Below, piece by piece: positions 2,707-28,800 of a stretch of DNA of 28,800 nt. Each line of letters starts with the position of its first letter. Position 1 is the first letter of the stretch. This DNA is from Gleimia europaea ACS-120-V-Col10b (lineage in GTDB: Bacteria; Actinomycetota; Actinomycetes; Actinomycetales; Actinomycetaceae), in the NCBI RefSeq assembly GCF_000411155.1, contig NZ_KE150268.1:1-28800 (forward strand), read 5' to 3'. Below the pieces are notes generated by a model. That model did not search any database. It worked only from the letters and a program-made list of their open reading frames with translations, and had not been told where the DNA came from. A program made the position numbers and the translations under genes.

Positions 2707-2930
2707 GTGAGGGGAAGTGGCGAATCTAGGGGTGATTTCTGGCAGTTTGGGTCTGAATATCGTGTGAGCGGGGGTGCTGTAATCAGGTGCGTGAGGGGAA
2801 CTGGCTTTTTTGGATCCTGTTTTGGGTGTTTTGGGTCTGAATACTGATGGGGGTGGGTTCGGCTGGTTGGTATTCAGAGGGGAAGTGGCGAATCTAGGGG
2901 TGGTTTCTGCCAGTTTGGGTCTGAATACCG
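2707..2930. repeat. 224-bp direct repeat, left copy (three 51-nt units on an 84-bp period)
   Basis: This block recurs at 4108-4331 with the same length and only three mismatches, all in the first unit. It contains three 51-nt units starting GAGGGGAA and ending GGGTCTGAATA, at 2709-2759, 2793-2843 and 2877-2927, separated by two unlike 33-nt stretches, so the period is exactly 84 bp. Unit 2 is diverged in its middle. The minus strand is open through all units and would read 28-residue repeats starting V/I-FRPK, but no convincing start or ribosome-binding site is seen, so I do not call a gene. Confidence 0.95.
2836..2878. repeat. Inverted repeat inside the direct repeat
   Basis: TCTGAATAC at 2836-2844 is the perfect reverse complement of GTATTCAGA at 2870-2878, a 9-bp stem around a 25-nt G-rich interval. 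It joins the end of one 51-nt unit to the start of the next. The same structure is present in the right-hand repeat at 4237-4279. Confidence 0.75.
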
Positions 2931-3038: not shown

Positions 3039-4040
3039 ATGCATTTGCTTGTAACCGGAGGAGCGGGCTTTATCGGCTCTAACTTCACATCGTTGGCTCT
3101 CGCAAGAGGGGCACGCGTCACGGTGCTCGATGCCCTCACTTACGCTAGCGGCAAGCAGTTTGTCGAGGCAGATATGAGTCTCTACCCGAACATGTGCAGG
3201 CTCGTTGTGGATAGCATCTTGAATCGGGAAACGGTTTACGACCTGGTGCGTGAGGTCGATGCTGTTGTTCACTTTGCGGCGGAATCGCACAACGATAACT
3301 CGTTGCAGGACCCACTGTCGTTTGTGCGCACGAACGTGGAGGGCACGGCGATTCTTCTAGAGGCGGCTCGCGAGTTCAACGTGCGGCTCCACCATGTTTC
3401 AACAGATGAGGTATACGGAGATTTACCGCTGAACGCCGATCAGAAGTTCACGGAGAACAGCCCGTACCGGCCCTCCTCGCCCTACTCGGCTTCGAAGGCG
3501 GCGGCAGATCATTTGGTGCGAGCTTGGGTGCGTTCATTCGGGTTGCCAGCCACGATTTCTAACAGCTCGAACAACTTTGGGCCGCGCCAGCACGTGGAGA
3601 AGCTGATCCCCCGAACTATAACGGAGCGCCTCCTCGGCCGCTGCCCGCGCGTCTACGGGACAGGGCAAAATGTTCGCGATTGGATCCACGTCGATGATCA
3701 TAACGAGGCCGTGTGGCGGATCCTTCAGAGCGGGCAGATGGGTAGAACATACCTGATTGGGGGCGAGCAGCAACGCTCAAACTTAGAGGTAGTTAGGTAT
3801 ATTAACTTTCTTATGGGAGCGGAGCGAGACGACCTCGAGTTTGTTGTAGACAGGCCGGGGCATGACCGCAGGTATGCGCTTGATGCGCAGCGGATTCGCG
3901 AGGAACTTGGGTGGCGCCCCGCACGATTAAGGTTCGAGGACGAGCTAGCTAAAACTATCCATTGGTACGAGCAGAACCGCTCCTGGTGGGAGCCAATGAA
4001 GACTGCAACAGAACAACGTCTCTCCAAGCACGGCTACTGA
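3039..4040 (+). CDS. rmlB: dTDP-glucose 4,6-dehydratase-like NAD-dependent sugar-nucleotide dehydratase
   Basis: A 333-residue extended short-chain dehydrogenase matching RmlB, which converts dTDP-glucose to dTDP-4-keto-6-deoxyglucose for rhamnose and deoxysugar synthesis. The Rossmann motif TGGAGFIGS is at residues 6-14, HFAAESH near 78-84, the catalytic STDEVYG at 121-127, and the YxxxK pair at Tyr149/Lys153 (YSASK). SNNFGPRQ and RDWIHVDDH match the substrate-binding segments NNYGPYQ and RDWLYVEDH. The start at 3039 gives the canonical N-terminus directly; only a weak GAGAG lies upstream. No rmlA, rmlC or rmlD is adjacent and the gene is bracketed by 224-bp direct repeats, so it may be a displaced or mobile copy. 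A related 4,6-dehydratase specificity (e.g. GDP- or UDP-sugar) is less likely, given the TDEVYG motif. Confidence 0.88.
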   Translation: MHLLVTGGAGFIGSNFTSLALARGARVTVLDALTYASGKQFVEADMSLYPNMCRLVVDSILNRETVYDLVREVDAVVHFAAESHNDNSLQDPLSFVRTNVEGTAILLEAAREFNVRLHHVSTDEVYGDLPLNADQKFTENSPYRPSSPYSASKAAADHLVRAWVRSFGLPATISNSSNNFGPRQHVEKLIPRTITERLLGRCPRVYGTGQNVRDWIHVDDHNEAVWRILQSGQMGRTYLIGGEQQRSNLEVVRYINFLMGAERDDLEFVVDRPGHDRRYALDAQRIREELGWRPARLRFEDELAKTIHWYEQNRSWWEPMKTATEQRLSKHGY

Positions 4041-4107: not shown

Positions 4108-4331
4108 GTGAGGGGAAGTGGCGAATCGAGGGGTGGTTTCTGCCAGTTTGGGTCTGAATATCGTGTGAGCGGGGGTGCTGTAATCAGGTGCGTGAGGGGA
4201 ACTGGCTTTTTTGGATCCTGTTTTGGGTGTTTTGGGTCTGAATACTGATGGGGGTGGGTTCGGCTGGTTGGTATTCAGAGGGGAAGTGGCGAATCTAGGG
4301 GTGGTTTCTGCCAGTTTGGGTCTGAATACCG
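4108..4331. repeat. 224-bp direct repeat, right copy
   Basis: This is the second copy of the block at 2707-2930, displaced by exactly 1401 bases without indels. Differences are confined to the first unit (for example CGAGGGG for CTAGGGG, and CTGCCAG for CTGGCAG), where this copy agrees better with its own third unit. The remaining 170 or so bases, including both 33-nt intervals, are identical. The degenerate fourth unit of the left array is absent. With the C10 tract and the terminator it fills the gap between the dehydratase and transporter genes. Confidence 0.95.
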
Positions 4332-17170: not shown

Positions 17171-18322
17171 ATGACTGATGGGCTGACCCATAACATGACG
17201 GCGCTCGAAGCTGCGGGAGAGCGCGCGCTACCCGCAGCCGAGGACGTAGCAAAACGTTTCAAAGTGCTACCGCACCCGGCGCCCGCGAGCGACGAAGCGT
17301 GGGCAAAGGCAATGGAAGAGCTCGACTTCGGTGCCGCCTACTCTGACCACATGGCGCGCGCGGTTTGGACAAAAGGGGAGGGGTGGCACAGCAAGCAGAT
17401 CGTGCCGTTTGGGCCGCTAACCCTCTCGCCCGCCGCGGCTGTGCTTCACTACGGGCAAGAAATCTTCGAGGGGATGAAGGCGTACCGCCACGATGACGGC
17501 TCGATCTGGACCTTCCGCCCCGCCTATAACGCCGCCCGCTTTAACGCTTCGGCAAAGCGCATGTGCATGCCGCAGCTGGAAGTTGAGGATTTCGTAGGCG
17601 CAATCGCCGCCCTCGTGAAGGAGGACGCGAAGTGGGTGCCAACGCCGTTTGGCTCATCGCTCTACCTGCGCCCTGTCATGTTCGCCTCCGAGGCGTTCCT
17701 CGGCGTGCACGCTGCGAGCGAGTACACGTTCTTAACTATCGCAACCCCCGTTGGTCTCTACTTCAAGGACGGCCTGAGCCCGGTATCAATTTGGGTTGCC
17801 GACGATTACCACAGGGCTGGCCCAGGTGGTACAGGTGCGGCAAAGACGGGCGGTAACTACGCCGGTGCGCTCCTGCCGCAAGAAAAAGCCGCCGAGGCCG
17901 GCTTTGATCAGGTGTGCTTCCTGGATGCGCGCGAGAACCAGTACTTGGAAGAGCTCGGCGGCATGAACGTGTTTGTCGTCCGCTCCGACGGCTCGGTGGT
18001 AACACCCGCGCTGACCGGAACGATTCTGGAAGGCTCCACCCGCTCCGCGATCATCCGGTTGCTGCGCGACCGCGGCACGCCCGTATTCGAAGAGCGTATT
18101 CGCCTAGCCGACCTCGCAGATGACATTAAGCGCGGTGAGGTAACCGAAATGTTTGCGTGCGGCACGGCTGCCGTGGTCACTCCAATCGGGAGGCTCGCAT
18201 CGACAGACTTTGACCTGGAAATCCCGGGAACTGCCGTCACACTTTCGGTTTACAACCAGCTGGTTGGCATCCAAAACGGTGAGGAACCCGATCCCTACAA
18301 CTGGCTCTACCGCATCGCGTAG
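17171..18322 (+). CDS. ilvE: Branched-chain amino acid aminotransferase
   Basis: A 383-residue fold-type IV PLP aminotransferase that interconverts branched-chain 2-keto acids and leucine, isoleucine or valine, using glutamate. The PLP lysine is Lys225 in AAKTGGNYAG. FEGMKAYRHDDGSIWTFRP and the EELGGMNVFVV segment are typical of class II BCATs of actinobacteria. The C-terminal CGTAAVVTPIG motif binds the cofactor phosphate. The length and the N-terminal extension before VLPHPAPASDE are normal for this class. The ATG at 17171 follows AAAGGAAAGGAAGC. It acts in the same pathway as ilvBNC but is a separate unit with its own terminator. Confidence 0.97.
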   Translation: MTDGLTHNMTALEAAGERALPAAEDVAKRFKVLPHPAPASDEAWAKAMEELDFGAAYSDHMARAVWTKGEGWHSKQIVPFGPLTLSPAAAVLHYGQEIFEGMKAYRHDDGSIWTFRPAYNAARFNASAKRMCMPQLEVEDFVGAIAALVKEDAKWVPTPFGSSLYLRPVMFASEAFLGVHAASEYTFLTIATPVGLYFKDGLSPVSIWVADDYHRAGPGGTGAAKTGGNYAGALLPQEKAAEAGFDQVCFLDARENQYLEELGGMNVFVVRSDGSVVTPALTGTILEGSTRSAIIRLLRDRGTPVFEERIRLADLADDIKRGEVTEMFACGTAAVVTPIGRLASTDFDLEIPGTAVTLSVYNQLVGIQNGEEPDPYNWLYRIA

Positions 18323-19085: not shown

Positions 19086-20777
19086 ATGCACGACAGTGAC
19101 AGGCCCTGGCTCAGAAAAGACACGATCTACGCAACGGCTCCCGATGGTGTTCTAATCTCGAATGCCTCCACGGGCTTCGAAATCGCCGGCCGAAGTGCGT
19201 ACGCGCTTTTCGATAAGGTCGCGCCCCTCTTCAACGGAACCGTGTCGGTTGGTGAAATCAAATCGTCGGTACCCGAAAACGTTTGGAAACTGATGCTCCA
19301 AATCATCAATCCGCTCGCGGAGCACGGGTTCTTGCGGTGGATCCCACAAACCGACTTCGACCTCCTGCCCGATGACCTTCGCAGTCAGTACCTGGATCAG
19401 ATTGCATTCCTAGCGCAATACACCGACGAACCTCACGCCGCATTCTTAGACTTTCACGAAGCTGAGATAGTGCTCGTTGGCAACGACCCGATTCTTGACT
19501 CCCTGCGCGCAAACCTGTCAGAAAACGGCGCTTCCCACCTCACTTCTGTTTCCTCCATTGATGAGGACGTGGCTGGCGACCTGCTTATCTTCGGACCCAC
19601 GGGGCTTGAGTCTCTCGATAAGGCGAAGCGCAGCGCTGCAGCTCAGATGGTCATTTGCCCCGCGGGTAACAAGATCTGGACGCTGCCCGTTAGGTGGTCT
19701 CGGGCAGATGCTCACTGGCGATCGGGACTGAACTCGCTTCGAAGAGGAGCAGTAGCGGGGGAGTGGGACGAGGCATTTCGCGAGGCGAAAGCGGGCAATC
19801 CCGCGTGGAGCTACGCAACATCGTCCGAGGCCGTTCAGCGCCTTTACGGCGCGCTACTCGCATACGAAGTTTTCAAAGGCATCACGGGCGCAATCAAGGC
19901 CGAAACAGGAAACTCGCTGTTCGCACTGGATTGCCTGAGCGGCGAAACCGAGATTCATAAAATCACGCCCATTTTCGAATCCGTCGATTACAAGACCCAC
20001 GAGATGCTCGCGAGCGGCCGTGGCGGCGTAGACGAATGGGACGCGCGAGATGCCGTGCAGGCCCGCCCGCAGTTTTCAAACGCGGATTCGCGTAGCGCGC
20101 AATACGACGCCTACTGGGCGCCCCTAGTCGATCCGGTTACTATGCCCGCATTCAGTTTCGATGATTTGGATCTGCCTCAAATCCCGCTCAAAGTTTCAGC
20201 CGTGTGCACGCGCTTCGGCGTCGTTCGAACCGCGAGCGCGTGGACTACCGCGGACGCGCGAATCGATGGCATTGCAACGGCGTACGGGCTCGCCCTGTCA
20301 GAGCACACGCGAAACGACGGGCGGCCACTCCAAACCGTATTTGGCGTTGATCGAACACCTCACGACGCAGTTGCAAGAGCGCTCGAACTCATTGCTAACG
20401 CCATCGAGTTAGCGCCGGGCGTATCCATTGGCAGACACGTTATTCCTGGACGCCTGGGTGCATTCATTGACGACGTCTCAAAGGGCAGCGTTGCACTCGA
20501 ATACATGGGCGAGGTCGCCGGATTCCATCTCGTTAAAGCACGCGCCGGCCAGTGGGCCCACACAAGCGTGGGCGCAACGCCCGAGCAAGCGCAGGCGAGC
20601 GCCGCCCTGGAGGTCCTCGGCTCAGCGCAGACCGGGTCGGCCTCGGATATCAACATTGAGCTTGATGAAGATTTCCAGACCCTGCTGACGAGCCCGCCGA
20701 GGATTCGAATCGTTGCGCTGGCCGATGGATGGTACGTAGCGATCGCTTGTGCGAATGGAAGCTGTAGTAACCAATGA
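19086..20777 (+). CDS. ocin-ThiF/E1-like TOMM cyclodehydratase partner (leader-peptide binding)
   Basis: A 563-residue protein matching the E1-like (ocin-ThiF-like) component of azole-forming RiPP pathways, which binds the precursor leader and delivers it to YcaO. Residues 1-88 read as a winged-helix RiPP recognition element: a beta-strand pair (GVLISNASTGFEIAG) followed by helices (AYALFDKVAPLF, VSVGEIKSSVPENVWKLMLQ) and AEHGFLRWI. Residues from about 126 resemble a Rossmann-like E1 fold, but the glycine loop is AEIVLVGNDPILDSL, not GxGxxG, and there are no paired CxxC zinc motifs. It is therefore likely non-catalytic, as known for this family. The remaining C-terminal half is conserved only at family level. 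The ATG at 19086 has GGGAAG seven bases upstream. It is the first gene of the operon, and its stop overlaps the YcaO start (ATGA). Confidence 0.82.
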   Translation: MHDSDRPWLRKDTIYATAPDGVLISNASTGFEIAGRSAYALFDKVAPLFNGTVSVGEIKSSVPENVWKLMLQIINPLAEHGFLRWIPQTDFDLLPDDLRSQYLDQIAFLAQYTDEPHAAFLDFHEAEIVLVGNDPILDSLRANLSENGASHLTSVSSIDEDVAGDLLIFGPTGLESLDKAKRSAAAQMVICPAGNKIWTLPVRWSRADAHWRSGLNSLRRGAVAGEWDEAFREAKAGNPAWSYATSSEAVQRLYGALLAYEVFKGITGAIKAETGNSLFALDCLSGETEIHKITPIFESVDYKTHEMLASGRGGVDEWDARDAVQARPQFSNADSRSAQYDAYWAPLVDPVTMPAFSFDDLDLPQIPLKVSAVCTRFGVVRTASAWTTADARIDGIATAYGLALSEHTRNDGRPLQTVFGVDRTPHDAVARALELIANAIELAPGVSIGRHVIPGRLGAFIDDVSKGSVALEYMGEVAGFHLVKARAGQWAHTSVGATPEQAQASAALEVLGSAQTGSASDINIELDEDFQTLLTSPPRIRIVALADGWYVAIACANGSCSNQ

Positions 20778-22372
20778 GGCCGATCGAGGGGATGCGGTAC
20801 GCGGTCTTACCGGGCGAGGGCGCGTGTCGCACCTGCTTGCAGCAGCAGGTGATAGACACGGACAGGTTCATGTTCCGAACCGGTAATCCTTTGAACGCCG
20901 TGAGCGCAAACAGAACCAATCCCTTCTTTGCTCGCGCGCTTCAGGCCGCTTCTAAGTGTGGGTTCGCAGGCGGGCTCTCGATTAGCAAAGGCTCGCTATC
21001 TACACGCTCCGCTCGATCCACTTGCAGGCATGTTCAAACCGGTAGCGATGAGGCCGTGACATCGGCACGCTATCGAGCAAAGAAACTCCCAGACTTCTTC
21101 ACAGCGGCTAGGGAAACAGACTTCATAAGCCCGGTGCACGCGACCATCGGCACCTTCATTGACTACGACGTTTCAGGCCTTGCCACCGCGAAATCATCCG
21201 GCTTCATGATTCGCTACAGCGGAAGTGATTCATTCACGAGGCCGTGGGGCGGCCACTGCGAGAACTTCAACGACGCAACGCGCCTCGGCATCCTCGAAGG
21301 AATCGAGCGCGTTGCCTGCGAGAGCCCGGCACCCGAGCAAGTGGCGGTAGACGCCGAAGACTTCGCAGAAACGATCGGCTTGGAGAAGTTCGGCATAGAC
21401 ATTGGTCCGTGGAAAACCGCACAGCCAAAAGTGAGGGCCTGGACCCGAGGATGGGCGCTGGGGGAGCGCGAACCCGGTTTCCTCGGGCGCGAAGTAGCGC
21501 TACCGGAAAGACTCGTCTACTTCGCGCCAACTGCAGATACTGAACCATGGGTGCAAGACTCCTCCAACGGTTGTGCCGTTGGTGGCACGGATTCGGAAGC
21601 GATTCTTTTCGGGCTCTTAGAGGCCGTGGAGAGAGACGCGTTCCTGGCCGCCTGGTATGGCGGTTTGGAACTGTCACCGATTGCTCCAGAATCGATTCAA
21701 AACGACGTATCCAATAGCTACTTACAACGCCTCGCGCTAAACGGAGTGCAGGTCGTATTGCTCGACGCGACTGTTGGAATACAGATTCCCACGGTCGTCG
21801 CGGTGTGCGAAGAACCGGGTGGTTCCACGTGCGTTGGCGCGGGCTGTCATCCAGATCCTGAACGCGCGTTGAAAAGCGCTTTGATCGAAGTGGCCTCAGA
21901 CTTCCAAGTGGTTGCCGCGCACCGCGAGCAGCGCCGCGAAGAGCTCAAAGCAATGCTTGCCGACTATTCTCTTGTGCGCGTCATGGAAGATCACGCGGAC
22001 ATGTTCGCGCATCCGGATGCGCGAGGCCTTATATCGCGCTGGCGACATCCGCGAAAACGGCAGATCTCTTTAGACACGCTCAAGCGGGCAGGTAACGCTG
22101 ATCGATCCGTGGAGAGCGATTTGCGCTTCAGCATTAAGCAGTGCCGCGAGGCCGGTTTCGAGCCGATCGCGTGTGAGCTGACAGACGGCCTCGCCCGCGC
22201 TGTTGGTGCACACGTGTGGAAAGTGGATGTGCCCGGCCTCATACCAATCGACTTCGGGCGCTACCAGCGCGTCTACAGCATGAGCCGGCTTGAAGATGTC
22301 GCCCGAGCATTTGGCGATTTGCCGGCCGGCGCCAAGTTCCAGCCCGTCACGATTCCCCATCCATTCCCGTAG
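20774..22372 (+). CDS. YcaO-domain azoline-forming cyclodehydratase
   Basis: A 532-residue YcaO protein of the TOMM (SagD-like) type, which uses ATP to cyclise Cys, and sometimes Ser/Thr, onto the preceding amide to give thiazolines/oxazolines. ATP/Mg2+ site motifs are visible: LGILEGIERVACE near residues 172-184, GLLEAVERDAFLAAW near 280-294, and ERALKSALIEVASDFQ further on. The C-terminus ends in PHPFP, the PxPxP motif that marks azoline-forming YcaOs and helps their activity. The N-terminal 100 residues carry a CRTC pair (Cys18, Cys21). The start overlaps the upstream stop by four bases, implying coupled translation with its leader-binding partner. A macroamidine- or thioamide-forming YcaO is unlikely, given the E1-like partner and adjacent dehydrogenase. 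Confidence 0.93.
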   Translation: MRPIEGMRYAVLPGEGACRTCLQQQVIDTDRFMFRTGNPLNAVSANRTNPFFARALQAASKCGFAGGLSISKGSLSTRSARSTCRHVQTGSDEAVTSARYRAKKLPDFFTAARETDFISPVHATIGTFIDYDVSGLATAKSSGFMIRYSGSDSFTRPWGGHCENFNDATRLGILEGIERVACESPAPEQVAVDAEDFAETIGLEKFGIDIGPWKTAQPKVRAWTRGWALGEREPGFLGREVALPERLVYFAPTADTEPWVQDSSNGCAVGGTDSEAILFGLLEAVERDAFLAAWYGGLELSPIAPESIQNDVSNSYLQRLALNGVQVVLLDATVGIQIPTVVAVCEEPGGSTCVGAGCHPDPERALKSALIEVASDFQVVAAHREQRREELKAMLADYSLVRVMEDHADMFAHPDARGLISRWRHPRKRQISLDTLKRAGNADRSVESDLRFSIKQCREAGFEPIACELTDGLARAVGAHVWKVDVPGLIPIDFGRYQRVYSMSRLEDVARAFGDLPAGAKFQPVTIPHPFP

Positions 22373-22382
22373 GAGCGAAACG

Positions 22383-23924
22383 ATGCAGCAATGGTGTAAA
22401 CCCGGTGAGGCGGCAGTAGCTTACGCGAGCCTCATTTATTTTCGCGTTCGAGACGGGATGCTCATAAACGATTGGAAAGTCGACTGGGCGCACGAACCGC
22501 TCACGCACTCCTACTACGAAACTGATCAGGTGGAGTCGATTCCGCTTCCAAGCCCAGATAGCGATCTTCTGCAGGGCGTGCCCGAATCATCCCCTGACTA
22601 CATTGCGGGCCTGCTCTATTGCGCCTACGGCTTCACTGGGCTGCGCCTCATCACCAACCGTAATGATCGCTCGGATGTTTACCGGTCGATGAAGGCCGTT
22701 AAGTTTGGCCGTCACACGGCCTCTGGCGGAGGTCGCTACTGTGCGGACTTCTACCTGGTCGAATCCGGGCGCGGTAGCGGGCACCTACCGCCGGGAATCT
22801 ACCATTACTCACCGCTTCGCCACGTCTGGGAGACCCTAGCGAAGGGCGACTACACGCACGACCTCGCCCGCGCGCAGGGGTACGAATCCACCTGCGAGCG
22901 CTACCTTCTACTCACTATCGACTACTGGCGAAGCGGTTTTAAATACAACGACTTCGCCTACCAAGCAACCGCCATGGACATCGGCACCGTCGTCGGGTCG
23001 ATCGCCGAAATCACGGGCGAGCGCACCGCGGGCACATGGGACGTGTGGATAAACGAGGTCGCGTTGTCGAAACTCCTCGGGCTTGATACAGACCGAACGG
23101 GCATCTACGCCGTCCAGGGTTGGGGCGAGCAAATCCCGACAGATCAGGCGAAGGTAGCCCCCGGTGCTCCCCAAGTCCCGCCGCGAGTCGATTCCGATTT
23201 CCAAAATGTCATGGACTTTAGCACCACTCTTGCAATGCAGCGTGACATGCAGGAGTTTGGGCAGCGGCCAGCAACCTTTACCTGCAATCCAGTTCCGAAC
23301 TGCCCGGGCGCACGCGGCAAGAGCAGATGGTGGGAGGAACTCCACCGCCGGCAAACGAGTTTTGGACGATTTACCGGTGAAGCATACCCCGCGCGTACGC
23401 TAACCACTCTCTTGGAAGCAGCAGATGCGGCATGCGAGCAGTTTCGCGTAGCTACGGGCGACGGACAGCTCGAGTGGGAATACCTCGTGTTTGTAAGCAA
23501 TGTAGACGGCCTAAAGCCGGGCCTCTACTCCTATAGGGACGCGAAGTTAAAACTGGTGCAAGATGATCCGCAACAAGATTTCCTTGCCGGAACTTACTTC
23601 CTGAAAAACTACGACGGGCGAAAAGCCGCGGCAACGATCATTCCGTGCGCCAACGTGTTCGAAGTGTCAAAACGATGGGGCGTGCGCGGATACCGGCTCG
23701 TTAATGCGCTAATTGGCGCCGCGTGCCAAGCAATATCGGTCGAGGCCGTTCGATGCGGCGTGGGCACTGGCACCGCACTCGGATTCGATGCGCAGGCGCA
23801 TGCGGAACACGCCGGTATGGGCAAAGACGAGATGACGCCAATGCTCATGATCATGACGGGCGTCGACAATCCTTACGCCGGCGAGTTCCGCACTGACGCA
23901 TCACTTATGTGGGGTGACAAATGA
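22383..23924 (+). CDS. SagB-type FMN-dependent azoline dehydrogenase, two nitroreductase-like domains
   Basis: A 513-residue protein expected to oxidise azolines to azoles with FMN. The N-terminal half has the SagB pattern FGRHTASGGGRYCADFYLVE, followed by YRSGFKYNDFAYQATAMDIG-like residues (here YWRSGFKYNDFAYQATAMD) and SKLLGLDTDRTGIYAVQGWG. A second, more diverged nitroreductase-like domain follows (SFGRFTGEAYPARTLTTLLE, GYRLVNALIGAACQAISVEA, VGTGTALGFD). Double-domain forms occur in thiopeptide clusters; one half may be structural only. The ATG at 22383 has AGGAG at 22372-22376. The open frame extends upstream, but this start lies ten bases after ycaO. The stop overlaps the next start by four bases (ATGA). 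Confidence 0.9.
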   Translation: MQQWCKPGEAAVAYASLIYFRVRDGMLINDWKVDWAHEPLTHSYYETDQVESIPLPSPDSDLLQGVPESSPDYIAGLLYCAYGFTGLRLITNRNDRSDVYRSMKAVKFGRHTASGGGRYCADFYLVESGRGSGHLPPGIYHYSPLRHVWETLAKGDYTHDLARAQGYESTCERYLLLTIDYWRSGFKYNDFAYQATAMDIGTVVGSIAEITGERTAGTWDVWINEVALSKLLGLDTDRTGIYAVQGWGEQIPTDQAKVAPGAPQVPPRVDSDFQNVMDFSTTLAMQRDMQEFGQRPATFTCNPVPNCPGARGKSRWWEELHRRQTSFGRFTGEAYPARTLTTLLEAADAACEQFRVATGDGQLEWEYLVFVSNVDGLKPGLYSYRDAKLKLVQDDPQQDFLAGTYFLKNYDGRKAAATIIPCANVFEVSKRWGVRGYRLVNALIGAACQAISVEAVRCGVGTGTALGFDAQAHAEHAGMGKDEMTPMLMIMTGVDNPYAGEFRTDASLMWGDK

Positions 23925-26518
23925 AAGCCGTCGATAACTACACGCAGCTACGTCTAGGTGGCGTGCCGCAAGAGTGCGTGCAAGATCTCTACTGCCCGCC
24001 GTTTGCAAGCGGAGTTGCAGACGTCGCGATTGCCAAAGCGAAGTTGTCTAGAGGCCGAGACCAAATCAGCGACGCCCTCCACGCGGCGATCGGTGAGCTC
24101 GAGCAGGATAAACGCAAGCCCGCAATCGCGCTGCGACGCGAACTTTACAAACTGAACGTGGCCAAGGCCGTTGCGATCTGGCGCGAAATTGATGCAGATA
24201 CGCGCCAAACCATCGATGCGCACGCGCCCAACACCGCAGAAATAGCGCAGTCATTTGCGGCGGGGCTTGCCACGATTAGTGAAGAGTTCGAAGACGCCAT
24301 GCAGTGGGAGCGCGAAGCGATCACCGCGTTTCGCTCCGATCAAGAGCTCATGTCCGGCCTCGCCATCTCCGCGCCAGCTCTCATTCCGGCACTCGAGCGA
24401 CTCGGCGCTCACGTCGAGGCTGGGGCCGTAGATAAAGAGGATAAAAAGGCTGAGCGGTCCATGCATTCCTACATCCTGCGTGCGGCCACAAAGACGAGTC
24501 CGTTCTCCACGCTTGGGCCGATCTCGATCGTCTCGCGCGAGGGAACCCCCTCGGGTAAGAACCGGGCGTCGCGCCCTTCGATCTACCCAATCGCTAGAGT
24601 GTTCAATCAGCTCTTATCCGAGCCCGCAAGACTTGGCAGTTTGGAAGTGCGAATCTCAAACGACGCGCGCGATGCCGACGGGGAGATCACTGTAGACCGC
24701 GCCGCGTGGGAGTTTAAAGACAACAACACGCGCACCGACTTCGCCAAATGTACCGAAAACACGGTTCGCATAAAGCAAAGAGCACTAACTGATGCCGTGG
24801 TTGGTCTCATTGGGTCAGGCAAAACAACGCTTGGCAGTTTGGCACAGCGGATTAGCGACGGAGCCAGTATCAAACTTGAAACGTCCTACGAGCTACTCGG
24901 AGATCTCATTCGGCTCGGTTTCCTTGAAGTGCCGGCGCTATCCTTCCACCCCTACGACGCAGCTCGGCTTCACGAAGTTGCTGGCAGCGTGCGCGTTTTG
25001 GATGAAGAGCTGGCTGACCTAATCAGTGAATACATCGAGCGAGCCGAGCGGTTTGTACACCTGGATTCTCCCGCGCAGCGCAGCGCAGAGATAGAAACTC
25101 TTCGAGACATTATCTCGCGCATGTACGAGCTCGCGGGCGTCACTGGGAAACTACCAAGATCCGTGGTCTATGAGGACGTCATGGTAGACGCGGACCTGCC
25201 CGGCGTGCGCTTTGAAGACGAGATTCAAGACGAAACAATTCGAAAGCTATTTGCGCTACTTGATCTTCTCGATGATTCCAACGTAAAGCACGCGCTCATG
25301 GTCGGGTATTTCAAGAGTCGCGAGGTCGACGCCATGGAAGCCGACGCGTTCATCCAGGGGTTTATCGACGAACTGTTCGACTCGTTCGAATCCTACGATC
25401 TTGGTGCTGTCGCGGATGAAGACCTCGAGGAAGACCCCTGGCTGCGCTGGGGAGATGCCTGGACCTGGGTTGCAGCTCGCCGACTGCTCACCGAGGAACT
25501 GAAGACTTTCATGACGTGTGAACCGGTCACCGCCGGCATGACGACTCTCGGCGACCTCACGCCAATCGATGCAAGTGAAGCGTTGGCGAAGGCGGTCTCG
25601 GTAGTGAATCTGTTTAAGCCGGCCTTCCGCCACTCCAATATTCTCGTGCAGCGGTGCGATAGCGGGCAGTGGGTGATAAACGATGCGTTTGGGGGCATAG
25701 GCTTTCAGATTTCGCGCTTTACCCACCTGCTTGATCTGCAAGCTCCGGCTTACACGCAGGACACGGGGGCGTGTGCAAATAAGTGCGGTGTCAAACTGGC
25801 GGAACTCTCGGGCGGCGCGCTCTTTTCTAATCTGAACCTGCACGAACCGCTGTTGCATTCGCGCATTGCGTTGCCGGGAGAGCCGGTTCGTAGTAGCTCC
25901 CAAGAAACGATTACCCTCGACGAGCTCACGGTTCGATACTCCGAGCGCGAGCGTCGCCTCGCGATCTTTCAAGGCGACGTGGAAGTACACCCGGTCTACT
26001 CCGGCTATCTCGTTCCGGCCGCTACACCGCAACGCAACCAAATACTGTCGCTTTTTACGCCGTCGGGGCAGATGAGCCGGAAACTTCCCGAAATTGTGAC
26101 TGATACGCCTGCGCCCGGCCACGTCACCCTAATCCCGCAGATTCGCCTGGACAACCTTGTAATAGCAAGAGCGCGGGCGATCGTGCCGGCAGTCGACGTG
26201 CCTAAACACAGCCCGCTCACGGCCTCGGGGTACGAAGAATGGGTCAGGTTTTGGACCGATCGCGGCCTGCCCATGTCTGGATTTATCCGGATTCGTGATG
26301 AATCGACTTCATCAAACAAGCCGTACTTTTTCGATATTCGCCAGATCCTGTCCTGCTCGAACTTGCACAACGACGTTCGAAAGGCCGAAGGAAAAGCGTT
26401 TATTGAAATCTCCGAAGTCCTTCCCAAAAACCCGAACGTCGAATATGAGGGCGAGGCCGTGGTGAGTGAGCAGATGGTCGGAATCAACTGGATGGAGGAT
26501 GCACCTTGCCAGTCCTAA
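23921..26518 (+). CDS. Split LanB dehydratase, glutamylation (N-terminal) protein
   Basis: An 865-residue protein matching the lantibiotic dehydratase N-terminal domain. In thiopeptide and goadsporin pathways this protein transfers Glu from Glu-tRNA to Ser/Thr side chains of the azole-modified precursor. The diagnostic stretch SYILRAATKTSPFSTLG is at residues 183-199. FKPAFRHSNILVQRCDSGQW-like and GAVADEDLEEDPWL segments lie in the second half. It lacks the C-terminal elimination domain, which is encoded by the next gene, so this is the split type and not the full-length NisB type. The start overlaps the SagB stop as ATGA; the end overlaps the next start by 13 bases. Confidence 0.92.
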   Translation: MKAVDNYTQLRLGGVPQECVQDLYCPPFASGVADVAIAKAKLSRGRDQISDALHAAIGELEQDKRKPAIALRRELYKLNVAKAVAIWREIDADTRQTIDAHAPNTAEIAQSFAAGLATISEEFEDAMQWEREAITAFRSDQELMSGLAISAPALIPALERLGAHVEAGAVDKEDKKAERSMHSYILRAATKTSPFSTLGPISIVSREGTPSGKNRASRPSIYPIARVFNQLLSEPARLGSLEVRISNDARDADGEITVDRAAWEFKDNNTRTDFAKCTENTVRIKQRALTDAVVGLIGSGKTTLGSLAQRISDGASIKLETSYELLGDLIRLGFLEVPALSFHPYDAARLHEVAGSVRVLDEELADLISEYIERAERFVHLDSPAQRSAEIETLRDIISRMYELAGVTGKLPRSVVYEDVMVDADLPGVRFEDEIQDETIRKLFALLDLLDDSNVKHALMVGYFKSREVDAMEADAFIQGFIDELFDSFESYDLGAVADEDLEEDPWLRWGDAWTWVAARRLLTEELKTFMTCEPVTAGMTTLGDLTPIDASEALAKAVSVVNLFKPAFRHSNILVQRCDSGQWVINDAFGGIGFQISRFTHLLDLQAPAYTQDTGACANKCGVKLAELSGGALFSNLNLHEPLLHSRIALPGEPVRSSSQETITLDELTVRYSERERRLAIFQGDVEVHPVYSGYLVPAATPQRNQILSLFTPSGQMSRKLPEIVTDTPAPGHVTLIPQIRLDNLVIARARAIVPAVDVPKHSPLTASGYEEWVRFWTDRGLPMSGFIRIRDESTSSNKPYFFDIRQILSCSNLHNDVRKAEGKAFIEISEVLPKNPNVEYEGEAVVSEQMVGINWMEDAPCQS

Positions 26519-27576
26519 CGAAAGTCCCAGCCTCTTTGGAACGCGAATACCGCCTGCGCGAAGAAAACGTCTGGCGCGCGTATCACGTTTTTTACGGAGG
26601 CACCCCTCTGACCGTGTTGCGCGGGTGCATACTCCCACTCGCGAAACAACTGGTTGACGACGGTGAAATCGTCGAATACTTCTTCATCAACTATTGGCTC
26701 GAGGGCTCGCACGTGCGCCTGCGTCTGCGCGTCAACCCAGATAATGTCCGGCGCGTTGACGCAAAAGTGATGAGCTATGTCGAACGCTACTTAGCGCAGC
26801 ACCCGTCTTACCATCCGATGGCAGAACTTGCGGACAACAACTTTTATGAAAGCCTGTTCAAAGGCGAGTTCACGGATGCGGATCGTCCCAAGTACTTCGA
26901 CGCGGAGGGGAATCCGAAGTTCGCCAAGAATAACTCGATCGAGATTCGCGAATACGAACCCGAGTGGTTACGCTACGGCGGCGAAGTTGGCATGCTCATC
27001 TCCGAGCGTCAGTTCGTGGATTCGACTGAACTCATGGTGAAACTTGCAGCCCTTGGCAACATGGGTGTGCGCACGATACTGCTCGGTATTTCGACCCAGA
27101 TCACCTTCATCACCGCGGTCTGCATGCTGAAAGACCTCGACCTCATCGAGGACTTCTTCGTCGCCTACCACCATCGTTGGGCAGACGGCTACGACACGAA
27201 CCCGGCGTACGGCACCGAGGAAGGGCGGCGCCAACACAACGCGACCGTTGAGAACATACGCCGCAAGATCGTCCCCCGCGCAAATTCGATTCTCACCGGC
27301 GACATTGATGACTTCCCGCAGATTCTTCGAGACTGGGCAAAAACCTGTACGAAAGTGCGCCAGCAAATCGAAGAAGCCTGCGCGGTCGCCCCGCTGAAAT
27401 TCGAGTACGAGGACGGGGTGCGCGAAGTGTCTGACCCGAAGGACGCCGCGTGGTCTTTGTGCCATTCCTACATTCACATGACCAACAATCGAATGATGGT
27501 CTCGGTAGCCGACGAAGCATTCATTGCCTACCAGATTGTGGAAGCTATGCGAAGGGCGAAAAGCGATGTCAACTGA
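26506..27576 (+). CDS. Split LanB dehydratase, glutamate-elimination protein (SpaB_C/thiopeptide-type domain)
   Basis: A 356-residue protein of the thiopeptide-type bacteriocin biosynthesis (SpaB_C) family. It would eliminate the activated glutamate to give dehydroalanine/dehydrobutyrine. Family features are WRAYHVFYGG at the N-terminus, FFINYWLEGSHVRLRLR near residue 60, IREYEPEWLRYGGEVGM (147-163) and the C-terminal SYIHMTNNRMM (321-331). The same fold is used by [4+2] pyridine synthases, but the YGG and HMTNNR elements and the position beside the glutamylation gene favour elimination. The start is a TTG at 26506 with GGAGG at 26494-26498; the start lies inside the previous gene. It overlaps the protease gene by 11 bases. 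Confidence 0.87.
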   Translation: MPVLTKVPASLEREYRLREENVWRAYHVFYGGTPLTVLRGCILPLAKQLVDDGEIVEYFFINYWLEGSHVRLRLRVNPDNVRRVDAKVMSYVERYLAQHPSYHPMAELADNNFYESLFKGEFTDADRPKYFDAEGNPKFAKNNSIEIREYEPEWLRYGGEVGMLISERQFVDSTELMVKLAALGNMGVRTILLGISTQITFITAVCMLKDLDLIEDFFVAYHHRWADGYDTNPAYGTEEGRRQHNATVENIRRKIVPRANSILTGDIDDFPQILRDWAKTCTKVRQQIEEACAVAPLKFEYEDGVREVSDPKDAAWSLCHSYIHMTNNRMMVSVADEAFIAYQIVEAMRRAKSDVN

Positions 27577-28657
27577 GCTAAAGAGCTGGGTTCCAAGCCC
27601 CATACCGCAACTCGAACTCGGGCCGGCAAGATGGAACGGGACGGCGATAGTCAGCGACATCAGTGCTGCGGGCTCGCAGCGTCTAATCGGGATCGGCCTC
27701 ATTGAGCGGCTCGTCCTCGAAAGCATTGACGGCGAGAAGTCAGTGGAACAGATCCTGGAGGGGCTACGAGCAGACGGTCTCGATCTGCCTGAAGGCAAAC
27801 TTCACGCGATACTGAACAAGTTCGCGTTTTTTGGAGTCATAAAGAGGCCGTTCACAACCGGGCGAGGTATCGGACAGGTTGATTCGGAATCTGCGCGTGC
27901 GCCGGGCGTTCGCGAAGACCAAGTCACAACCGCCAAAGAGCAGCGGGGAGTGCTTGCGCTTTGGAAGAACATGACCCGTCTAGCCACACCACCCATGTTC
28001 ACGATCCTCACGGTGTGTGGCATCGCGGCTCTCGTAGCGCTCGCGGTCACGGTGCCAAGAGCGCTAGAAACCCTGAAGGGTGCCGAGATCCTCTTTCTCG
28101 CGTTAGGCGTGTTCATCGCCATCTTATGGTCAATGATTGTGACCATCACACACGAAAATGCGCACGCAGCCGTGTTCAACGCGTACTCCAGCAGGGAGCC
28201 CTACTTAGCTCTAACGCGTTTTGGGATCATCCTCATGCCTAATACGCACATGCCCGGTATCTCGCTCATGAAACCGAAGCGGAAGGTAGCGGTCGTATCC
28301 GCAGGGCCCCTCACTTCAATGCTTCTAGCCGCGATACCCGTCGCGATCTATTGGGCTAGTGAAAATCCAGATGTTCAAACCGTTGTTGCAGCCTGCATCG
28401 TCCTAGACGCCCTCATCATCGGACTTGGCATCTCACTGTTCCCAAACACTGATGCAACTCGCGTTCTCGAAACCATCAGCGGAGTAGACCAAATCCAGGC
28501 GGTTGGATTTCGCACATTGGCGCGCAAATACCGCCTGCCCGCGTCGCTTCCGAAGAAAACGCGCGTATCCATACGCGCCTATCCAGTCTTGCTACTAGCT
28601 ACAACCGGAATCTGGCTAGTGGCAATAGGTTGGGCCATACGGCTCATCCTCAACTAG
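27566..28657 (+). CDS. M50-type membrane metalloprotease with N-terminal PqqD/RRE-like domain
   Basis: A 363-residue membrane protein. Residues about 25-96 look like a PqqD-like winged helix, with helices in IGLIERLVLESIDGEKSVEQ and EGKLHAILNKFAFFGVIKR, the kind of domain that binds RiPP leaders. After a linker come about five membrane segments (near 143-165, 172-195, 243-262, 270-292, 340-362). HENAH at 196-200 fits the HExxH zinc site of site-2/M50 proteases, and FPNTDATRVLE (292-302) fits the second conserved N/PxxD motif seen in YydH-like peptide zinc metalloproteases. It could cut the leader in the membrane, assist export, or give self-protection. The ATG at 27566 overlaps the previous stop by 11 bases; an in-frame upstream start at 27524 is less likely. 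It sits 30 bases before the precursor gene. Confidence 0.8.
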   Translation: MSTELKSWVPSPIPQLELGPARWNGTAIVSDISAAGSQRLIGIGLIERLVLESIDGEKSVEQILEGLRADGLDLPEGKLHAILNKFAFFGVIKRPFTTGRGIGQVDSESARAPGVREDQVTTAKEQRGVLALWKNMTRLATPPMFTILTVCGIAALVALAVTVPRALETLKGAEILFLALGVFIAILWSMIVTITHENAHAAVFNAYSSREPYLALTRFGIILMPNTHMPGISLMKPKRKVAVVSAGPLTSMLLAAIPVAIYWASENPDVQTVVAACIVLDALIIGLGISLFPNTDATRVLETISGVDQIQAVGFRTLARKYRLPASLPKKTRVSIRAYPVLLLATTGIWLVAIGWAIRLILN

Positions 28658-28668
28658 CCCCGCGGGGC
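28657..28668. repeat. Short perfect palindrome GCCCCGCGGGGC before the precursor gene
   Basis: A 12-bp perfect palindrome starts in the last base of the protease stop codon and lies 19 bases before the precursor ATG. It is too tight to be a normal hairpin loop, but could fold as a weak stem or serve as an mRNA processing site that lets the precursor be expressed more than the enzymes. A long T run is absent, so it is not a terminator. Confidence 0.35.
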
Positions 28669-28687
28669 AAAACAAGAAGGAGAGATC

Positions 28688-28800
28688 ATGAATCTCGAAG
28701 CACTCGCAAGCGAACTAGATACTTTCACGACTGAGACCTTTGAGGTCAAGGATTACGTTGACTACGCGGATATGGCCTTTGGCTCGACCTGCTCGTCTTC
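28688..28800 (+). CDS. RiPP precursor peptide (thiopeptide/goadsporin-like), C-terminus beyond window
   Basis: An open frame begins at ATG 28688 with a strong AAGGAGAG at 28677-28684 and runs off the window after 37 complete codons. The visible sequence starts MNLEALASELDTF, continues TTETFEVKDYVDYADMAFG and then STCSS, with a 38th codon beginning TC (Ser in any case). The acidic, helical leader with TFEVKDYVD resembles thiopeptide leaders, where an FE(I/V)xD motif is common. The change to Gly-Ser-Thr-Cys-Ser-Ser marks the likely core start at Ser33 or Thr34. Cys35 would be the first azole and the Ser run a source of dehydroalanines. The core's length and end are not visible. Confidence 0.85.
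   Translation, partial: MNLEALASELDTFTTETFEVKDYVDYADMAFGSTCSS

What the first reader, a model, noticed from the sequence alone, without database searches (positions are those of the whole stretch)
19086..28800. Uncharacterised thiopeptide- or goadsporin-like RiPP operon
Six overlapping or near-touching genes encode an E1-like leader-binding protein, azoline-type YcaO, SagB dehydrogenase, split LanB glutamylation and elimination proteins and an M50 protease, followed by a precursor with a Ser/Thr/Cys core. Established knowledge: this enzyme set makes peptides carrying both azoles and dehydroamino acids. The observed core start (STCSS) differs from the SCT- and SCN-type cores I recall for well-known thiopeptides, so the product is probably new.
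Basis: partly seen in the sequence, partly recalled or inferred. Interest (0 to 1): 0.95.

Follow-up and report, generated by a model that had tools for sequence, protein, structure and literature searches.

The report
Frozen-core azole peptide gene cluster
This stretch of an actinobacterial genome holds most of a gene set predicted to turn a small peptide, rich in cysteine, serine and threonine, into a linear, ring-studded compound, likely an antibacterial; relatives from several bacterial families keep the product part of that peptide nearly letter for letter, which suggests one specific product, and no described one was found.

Summary
In detail: six packed genes (19086-28657) plus a precursor cut off at 28800. 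It is not a thiopeptide operon. The LanB-C protein carries the NisB glutamate-elimination residues; their key histidine is kept in 14 of 14 family members and is tyrosine in 6 of 6 pyridine synthases. Five of six relatives' genomes hold no second such domain. The enzymes are sister to those of the 'coryneazolisin' clusters named in 2015 (LanB-C tree 100/100). Relatives show what lies past the edge: 1-4 precursors, an ABC exporter, a second YcaO and usually a small membrane protein. Cores are STCSSSSSSSCSSTCTSCCTSTSSCATA or close; Ancrocorticia and Microbacterium share all 28 residues while 21 of 28 codons differ synonymously. The protease is predicted to be an RRE fused to a site-2-type metalloprotease, as in daptides. 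Predicted product: a linear azole- and dehydroalanine-rich peptide; chemistry and target untested. 'Goadsporin-like' holds for the chemistry, 'thiopeptide' does not. New variant of a known kind.

The parts
19086..20777 (+). F gene: leader-binding, ocin-ThiF-like N-terminal part (563 aa), proposed to present the precursor to the cyclodehydratase
   Evidence: TIGR03693 partial match, 48.5 bits, below cut-off; conserved as first enzyme gene in relatives
20774..22372 (+). D1 gene: discrete azoline-type YcaO cyclodehydratase, C-terminus IPHPFP
   Evidence: PF02624 181.8 bits; C-terminal PxP
22383..23924 (+). B gene: SagB-type flavin dehydrogenase, azoline to azole (predicted)
   Evidence: TIGR03605 93.6 bits over cut-off, PF00881; start by homology and upstream sequence
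23921..26518 (+). LanB-N gene: split dehydratase, glutamylation half (predicted glutamyl-tRNA dependent)
   Evidence: PF04738 61.1 bits
26506..27576 (+). LanB-C gene: split dehydratase, glutamate-elimination half (predicted)
   Evidence: PF14028 123.9 bits; NisB R786/R826/H961 equivalents R73, R156, H324; tree
26722..26724 (+). codon of R73 (NisB R786 equivalent)
26971..26973 (+). codon of R156 (NisB R826 equivalent)
27475..27477 (+). codon of H324 (NisB H961 equivalent; Tyr in the 6 pyridine synthases aligned)
27566..28657 (+). predicted RRE fused to a site-2-protease-like (M50) membrane metalloprotease, proposed leader peptidase
   Evidence: HExxH H196/E197/H200 and D296 invariant in 20 of 20 rows; predicted model matches RRE TbiB1 and SpoIVFB
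27587..27856 (+). RRE-like domain (residues 8-97) of the protease
28151..28165 (+). HENAH zinc-binding motif (residues 196-200)
28688..28800 (+). first precursor peptide gene, truncated by the window end: leader MNLEALASELDTFTTETFEVKDYVDYADMAFG and first five core residues STCSS
   Evidence: complete homologues

Best explanation
The operon is predicted to make a linear peptide carrying many thiazole/oxazole rings and some dehydroalanines, by a pathway whose enzymes are sister to those of the uncharacterised coryneazolisin clusters. Proposed order (inferred from goadsporin and thiomuracin): the F protein holds the conserved leader (ETFEVKDYVDY); the YcaO D1, with or beside the second YcaO D2 that relatives encode downstream, would cyclodehydrate Cys and part of the Ser/Thr of the core; SagB would oxidise azolines to azoles; LanB-N would glutamylate remaining Ser and LanB-C would eliminate glutamate to give dehydroalanine; the RRE-bearing site-2-type protease would remove the leader at the membrane, probably at FG|STC; and the ABC exporter would release the product, with the small membrane protein as likely immunity. 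No pyridine macrocycle is expected. Shown by sequence: genes, order, catalytic residues, kinship, core conservation. Inferred: every reaction, the cleavage site and the antibacterial role.
For: Gene set and families. Elimination residues: the H961 equivalent is His in 14/14 window-type, 10/10 Streptomyces-type, 4/4 coryneazolisin and 7/7 proteins that I took as thiopeptide elimination partners, Tyr in 6/6 pyridine synthases; the R786 equivalent is Arg in 35/35 of the former and 1/6 of the latter; NisB R786A, R826A and H961A glutamylate without eliminating (PMC4979651 passage). Profile A1 scores the elimination partners 47-99 bits and the pyridine synthases 24-35 bits. One PF14028 domain per genome in 5 of 6 relatives. 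Coryneazolisin identity of L033-L036: precursor pattern of 10 C/S/T, Ile, 5-7 C/S/T in 4 of 4, as described (PMC4603692); clade 100/100 with the window type. Core: in twelve 28-mers from seven loci (two of them near-copies, L006 and L007) 22 of 28 positions never change. Precursor family NF033400 thiazolyl_B 40.7 bits, cut-off 30, for the Ancrocorticia homologue. Protease.
Confidence: 0.75

Rival explanations
1. A true thiopeptide: the LanB-C protein, or an unseen enzyme, would join two dehydroalanines into a pyridine and release a macrocycle.
For: Best PDB fold match is TbtD; weak NF045556 match; the precursor family carries the name thiazolylpeptide-type bacteriocin.
Against: Elimination histidine kept, Tyr in 6/6 pyridine synthases; one PF14028 copy per genome in 5 of 6 relatives and no NF045556 match over cut-off in 7 of 7 genomes, though the Streptomyces genome G643 has two further weak matches; a gene with HExxH follows LanB-C in 24 of 24 loci tested, whereas pyridine synthases themselves eject the leader (PMC7210931 passage).
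Confidence: 0.08
2. A coryneazolisin in the strict sense, i.e. the same product class as the Corynebacterium clusters named in 2015.
For: Same enzyme set (F, two YcaO, SagB, split LanB, HExxH protease) and sister enzymes.
Against: The described core pattern with a central Ile is absent from all 19 complete window-type STC precursors; the second YcaO ends CHPFA in the four coryneazolisin loci, against PH(P/A/S)FS in 9 of 10 window-type loci and LHPFS in L022.
Confidence: 0.12
3. A decayed or silent cluster without a product in this organism.
For: No expression data; the precursor is cut by the window end.
Against: All six genes are open, of the same length as in the relative L001 and collinear with it; codon-level sign of purifying selection on the core in relatives.
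Confidence: 0.05

Closest known systems
Coryneazolisin type 1/2 clusters (Cox, Doroghazi and Mitchell 2015, PMC4603692 section 26)
   Same: Two YcaO proteins, split LanB dehydratase, SagB, no [4+2] enzyme, HExxH protease, S/T/C core; LanB-C clade 100/100
   Different: Core is longer (22-30 aa against 16-18 counted by my script) and lacks the central Ile; second YcaO C-terminus differs; the paper calls the coryneazolisin product uncharacterised
Goadsporin (God), with the related spongiicolazolicins
   Same: Azoles plus dehydroalanine in a linear peptide; FMN dehydrogenase and split LanB (GodF/GodG) (PMC5303826 passages; spongiicolazolicins only from a PMC10676384 passage)
   Different: Goadsporin has a fused cyclodehydratase (PMC4603692) and an N-acetyltransferase GodH, and its leader is likely cut by the ABC transporter GodB; here F and YcaO are discrete, relatives have a second YcaO, an RRE-site-2-type protease is present and no acetyltransferase was seen in the operon
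Thiopeptides (thiomuracin Tbt, lactazole Laz)
   Same: Leader-binding F protein, YcaO, SagB-type dehydrogenase, split LanB, NF033400 precursor family
   Different: No pyridine synthase found; separate protease
Daptides (MpaP protease)
   Same: RRE fused N-terminally to an intramembrane site-2 protease (PMC10036551 passages); weak NF041824 match, 33.8 of 300 bits
   Different: The C-terminal amine chemistry and Thr-ending cores of daptides have no counterpart here
Dehydrazoles (carnazolamide, PMC10676384)
   Same: Azoles plus dehydroalanine in S/T/C-rich cores (abstract)
   Different: Dehydration by a DUF4135 enzyme, not by split LanB

Membership tests
Thiopeptide | [4+2] pyridine/piperidine synthase (TbtD-like) | tested here: not met
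   LanB-C has the elimination residues; no second PF14028 in 5 of 6 relatives' genomes, two in the sixth; no NF045556 match over cut-off in 7 of 7. The window's own genome is not held.
Thiopeptide | Central six-membered nitrogen ring in the product | not testable with these tools
   needs the product
[quoted passage not shown]
   PF02624 181.8 bits; D1 ends IPHPFP; PxP as mark of azoline-forming YcaO from a PMC7136475 passage
[quoted passage not shown]
   needs mass spectrometry
Goadsporin type | Split LanB (GodF/GodG) with an FMN dehydrogenase | tested here: met
Goadsporin type | Fused cyclodehydratase | tested here: not met
   F and D1 are separate genes in the window; a second YcaO follows in relatives
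Goadsporin type | N-acetyltransferase GodH | tested here: inconclusive
   none among the assigned genes from F to the membrane protein in L001-L004; the window is cut at 28800 and other places were not searched
Coryneazolisin | Two D (YcaO) proteins, LanB-like dehydratases, no [4+2] enzyme | tested here: met
   met in relatives that hold the right-hand part; in the window only the first YcaO is visible
Coryneazolisin | Core of 10 C/S/T, Ile, 5-7 C/S/T | tested here: not met
   0 of 19 complete window-type STC precursors have it; 4 of 4 Corynebacterium loci do; the window's own core is cut after 5 residues
Dehydrazole | DUF4135-cyclase dehydratase (LanMbC) | tested here: not met
   the dehydratase is PF04738 + PF14028; no other dehydratase among the six window genes
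RRE-site-2 protease (daptide MpaP type) | N-terminal RRE and membrane HExxH metalloprotease | tested here: met

The most novel reading that the evidence does not exclude
An undescribed actinobacterial class of ribosomal peptides in which two YcaO enzymes divide the work (for example thiazoles by one, oxazoles by the other) and a split LanB dehydrates what is left, turning a 28-residue, 93% Cys/Ser/Thr core into an almost fully modified azole/dehydroalanine ribbon. Its structure is held fixed across families because it acts on one conserved target, and its leader is cut by a protease that carries its own leader-recognition domain.
Probability: 0.35. Interest if true: 0.72.

Novelty: new variant of a known kind. 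Interest (0 to 1): 0.5.

Why it matters
Ser and Thr can be taken by either YcaO (azole) or LanB (dehydroalanine); how a pathway sorts them is stated to be unknown (PMC10676384 passage). A core such as that of L001 and L003 (14 Ser, 6 Thr, 6 Cys and 2 Ala) is an extreme case of that sorting problem, and several families keep its order fixed. The cluster is compact (about 14 kb in L001), occurs on an oral Actinomyces plasmid among other places and has relatives in cultured strains (L003, L007), so the question can be tested directly.
Full report
What is in the window. Six genes on the + strand from 19086 to 28657 and the start of a seventh at 28688 form a packed operon. Families over curated cut-offs are YcaO, nitroreductase/SagB, LanB N-terminal and LanB C-terminal; the first gene matches the ocin-ThiF-like leader-binding model only in part (48.5 bits, cut-off 561.9) and the sixth matches Peptidase_M50 weakly (16.6 bits, cut-off 27.2). 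Upstream are an ilvE-like gene (17171-18322) and an ilvB/N/C-like set (named by eye, not from a family search).

Relatives. A protein search with LanB-C gave 81 proteins. A scan of one genome per species gave 11 loci, a plasmid of Actinomyces oris one more, and sampling gave 6 of 396 genomes in the order and 5 of 213 in the family of Ancrocorticia at E<=1e-40, and 5 of 242 in the genus of the Corynebacterium hit at E<=1e-20. Each tally includes the query locus's own genome, and not every match is of the window type: four of the five in the last are coryneazolisins, and L023 of the first is nearer to the Streptomyces type. The closest locus, L001 (Actinomycetaceae MAG), has the same operon beside the same ilvE-like gene, with proteins 68.6-88.2% identical and 35 of the 37 visible precursor residues identical.

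What lies beyond the right edge. L005, L008 and L020 end at a contig edge. In L012 D2 and the membrane protein follow the precursors directly and ABC ATPase and permease matches lie about 4 kb on; in L021 and L022 D1 points the other way, and L022 has no membrane-protein hit. D1 ends PHPFP in 13 of 13 window-type loci where it was read (window, L001-L008, L012, L019, L021, L022) and in L074. D2 keeps a C-terminal PxP (PHPFS) in 7 of 10 window-type loci where it was read (L003, L004, L006, L007, L012, L019, L021) and in L074, but ends PHAFS in L001, PHSFS in L002 and LHPFS in L022. A C-terminal PxP marks azoline-forming YcaOs (PMC7136475 passage), so D1 looks azoline-forming throughout, while D2 does in most loci but not clearly in the window's two closest relatives. 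For this reason I put the two-enzyme novel reading at 0.35 and not at 0.4 as first drafted.

The core. Nineteen complete precursors from ten loci start STC after FG. Twelve, from L001-L007 (L006 and L007 are near-copies), are 28 residues long; 22 of their 28 positions never vary, and the other six vary only among S, T, C and A. Ancrocorticia (L003) and Microbacterium (L006) have one identical core (28/28) while 21 of the 28 codons differ synonymously and the adjoining leader is 20/30 identical; their other proteins are about 28-52% identical (the values for F and D1 are L001 against L006). This points to selection on the amino-acid sequence and not to recent exchange. So the freeze holds for one branch and not for the whole family.

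Kinship. In the LanB-C tree the 28 rows of window-type, Streptomyces-type and coryneazolisin proteins form one group (100/98), and window-type plus coryneazolisin another (100/100); the window type by itself has 86/86. Elimination partners and pyridine synthases are two further deep groups on long branches, and the tree does not say which of them is nearer. The four loci from the Corynebacterium genus were identified as coryneazolisin by their core pattern, 10 C/S/T, Ile, 5-7 C/S/T, in 4 of 4, as stated by Cox et al. (PMC4603692 section 26, read in full). The tree also places Corynebacterium sp. MSK297 (L004) inside the window type and away from coryneazolisins, which points to transfer between families.

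Mechanism. By analogy with goadsporin, where azoles come first and are needed for glutamylation (PMC5303826 passages), F plus D1 (and perhaps D2) would form azolines, SagB azoles, LanB-N/LanB-C dehydroalanines, then the protease would free the core and the ABC exporter would release it. Every reaction is inferred. What D2 does (oxazoles, a second set of sites, or a partner role) is open.

Novelty. The precursor family is annotated in public records (thiazolylpeptide-type bacteriocin; NF033400) and the sister class was named in 2015. No product or study of the STCSSSS core was met in the searches, which cover open-licence PubMed Central papers only and listed a part of the hits where many were found. 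Hence: new variant of a known kind.

Papers. PMC4603692: abstract, sections 19, 21, 26 and passages. PMC10676384: abstract and passages. PMC5303826, PMC7210931, PMC4979651, PMC4341554, PMC10885120, PMC9576775, PMC7470986, PMC7136475, PMC12338566, PMC10036551: passages only. All others: search listings only. No supplementary file was read.

Noticed in passing
window 2707-2930 and 4108-4331: A 224-base direct repeat, 99% identical, flanks the sugar-nucleotide-dehydratase-like gene 3039-4040 (named by eye); a 31-base unit recurs at 84-base steps in and beside it (4 + 3 copies). Origin unknown.
   Followed up: partly
L025 4277-4468: The Actinomyces genome G006 (in which L008 lies) also has a second PF14028 gene and, about 4 kb from it, a Cys-rich precursor-like open frame ending ACASCPSCSACASTSSC, perhaps a separate thiopeptide or LAP cluster.
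   Followed up: no
L075 16055 and 16308: A relative with one YcaO hit only and two precursor-like frames with many Cys (one ending CCSTTSCACSTTSCCSCSTSSTCSTSCSCGSTSSCA), perhaps a simpler form of the pathway.
   Followed up: no
L009, L010, L064, L067, L068, L069: Streptomyces-type loci carry a related two-YcaO cluster with a precursor ending ...LAG(S/C)TS(C/S)SSTSTCSSTTSTTSCSA, on the opposite strand after D2.
   Followed up: partly
L012 14216-15287: The Actinomyces oris plasmid cluster holds four tandem precursor genes with three different cores, and a two-component system lies between it and the ABC genes.
   Followed up: partly
L005 1439-2281: A transposase-like frame (judged by eye only) lies just before the Brevibacterium copy of the operon, in line with mobility.
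   Followed up: no
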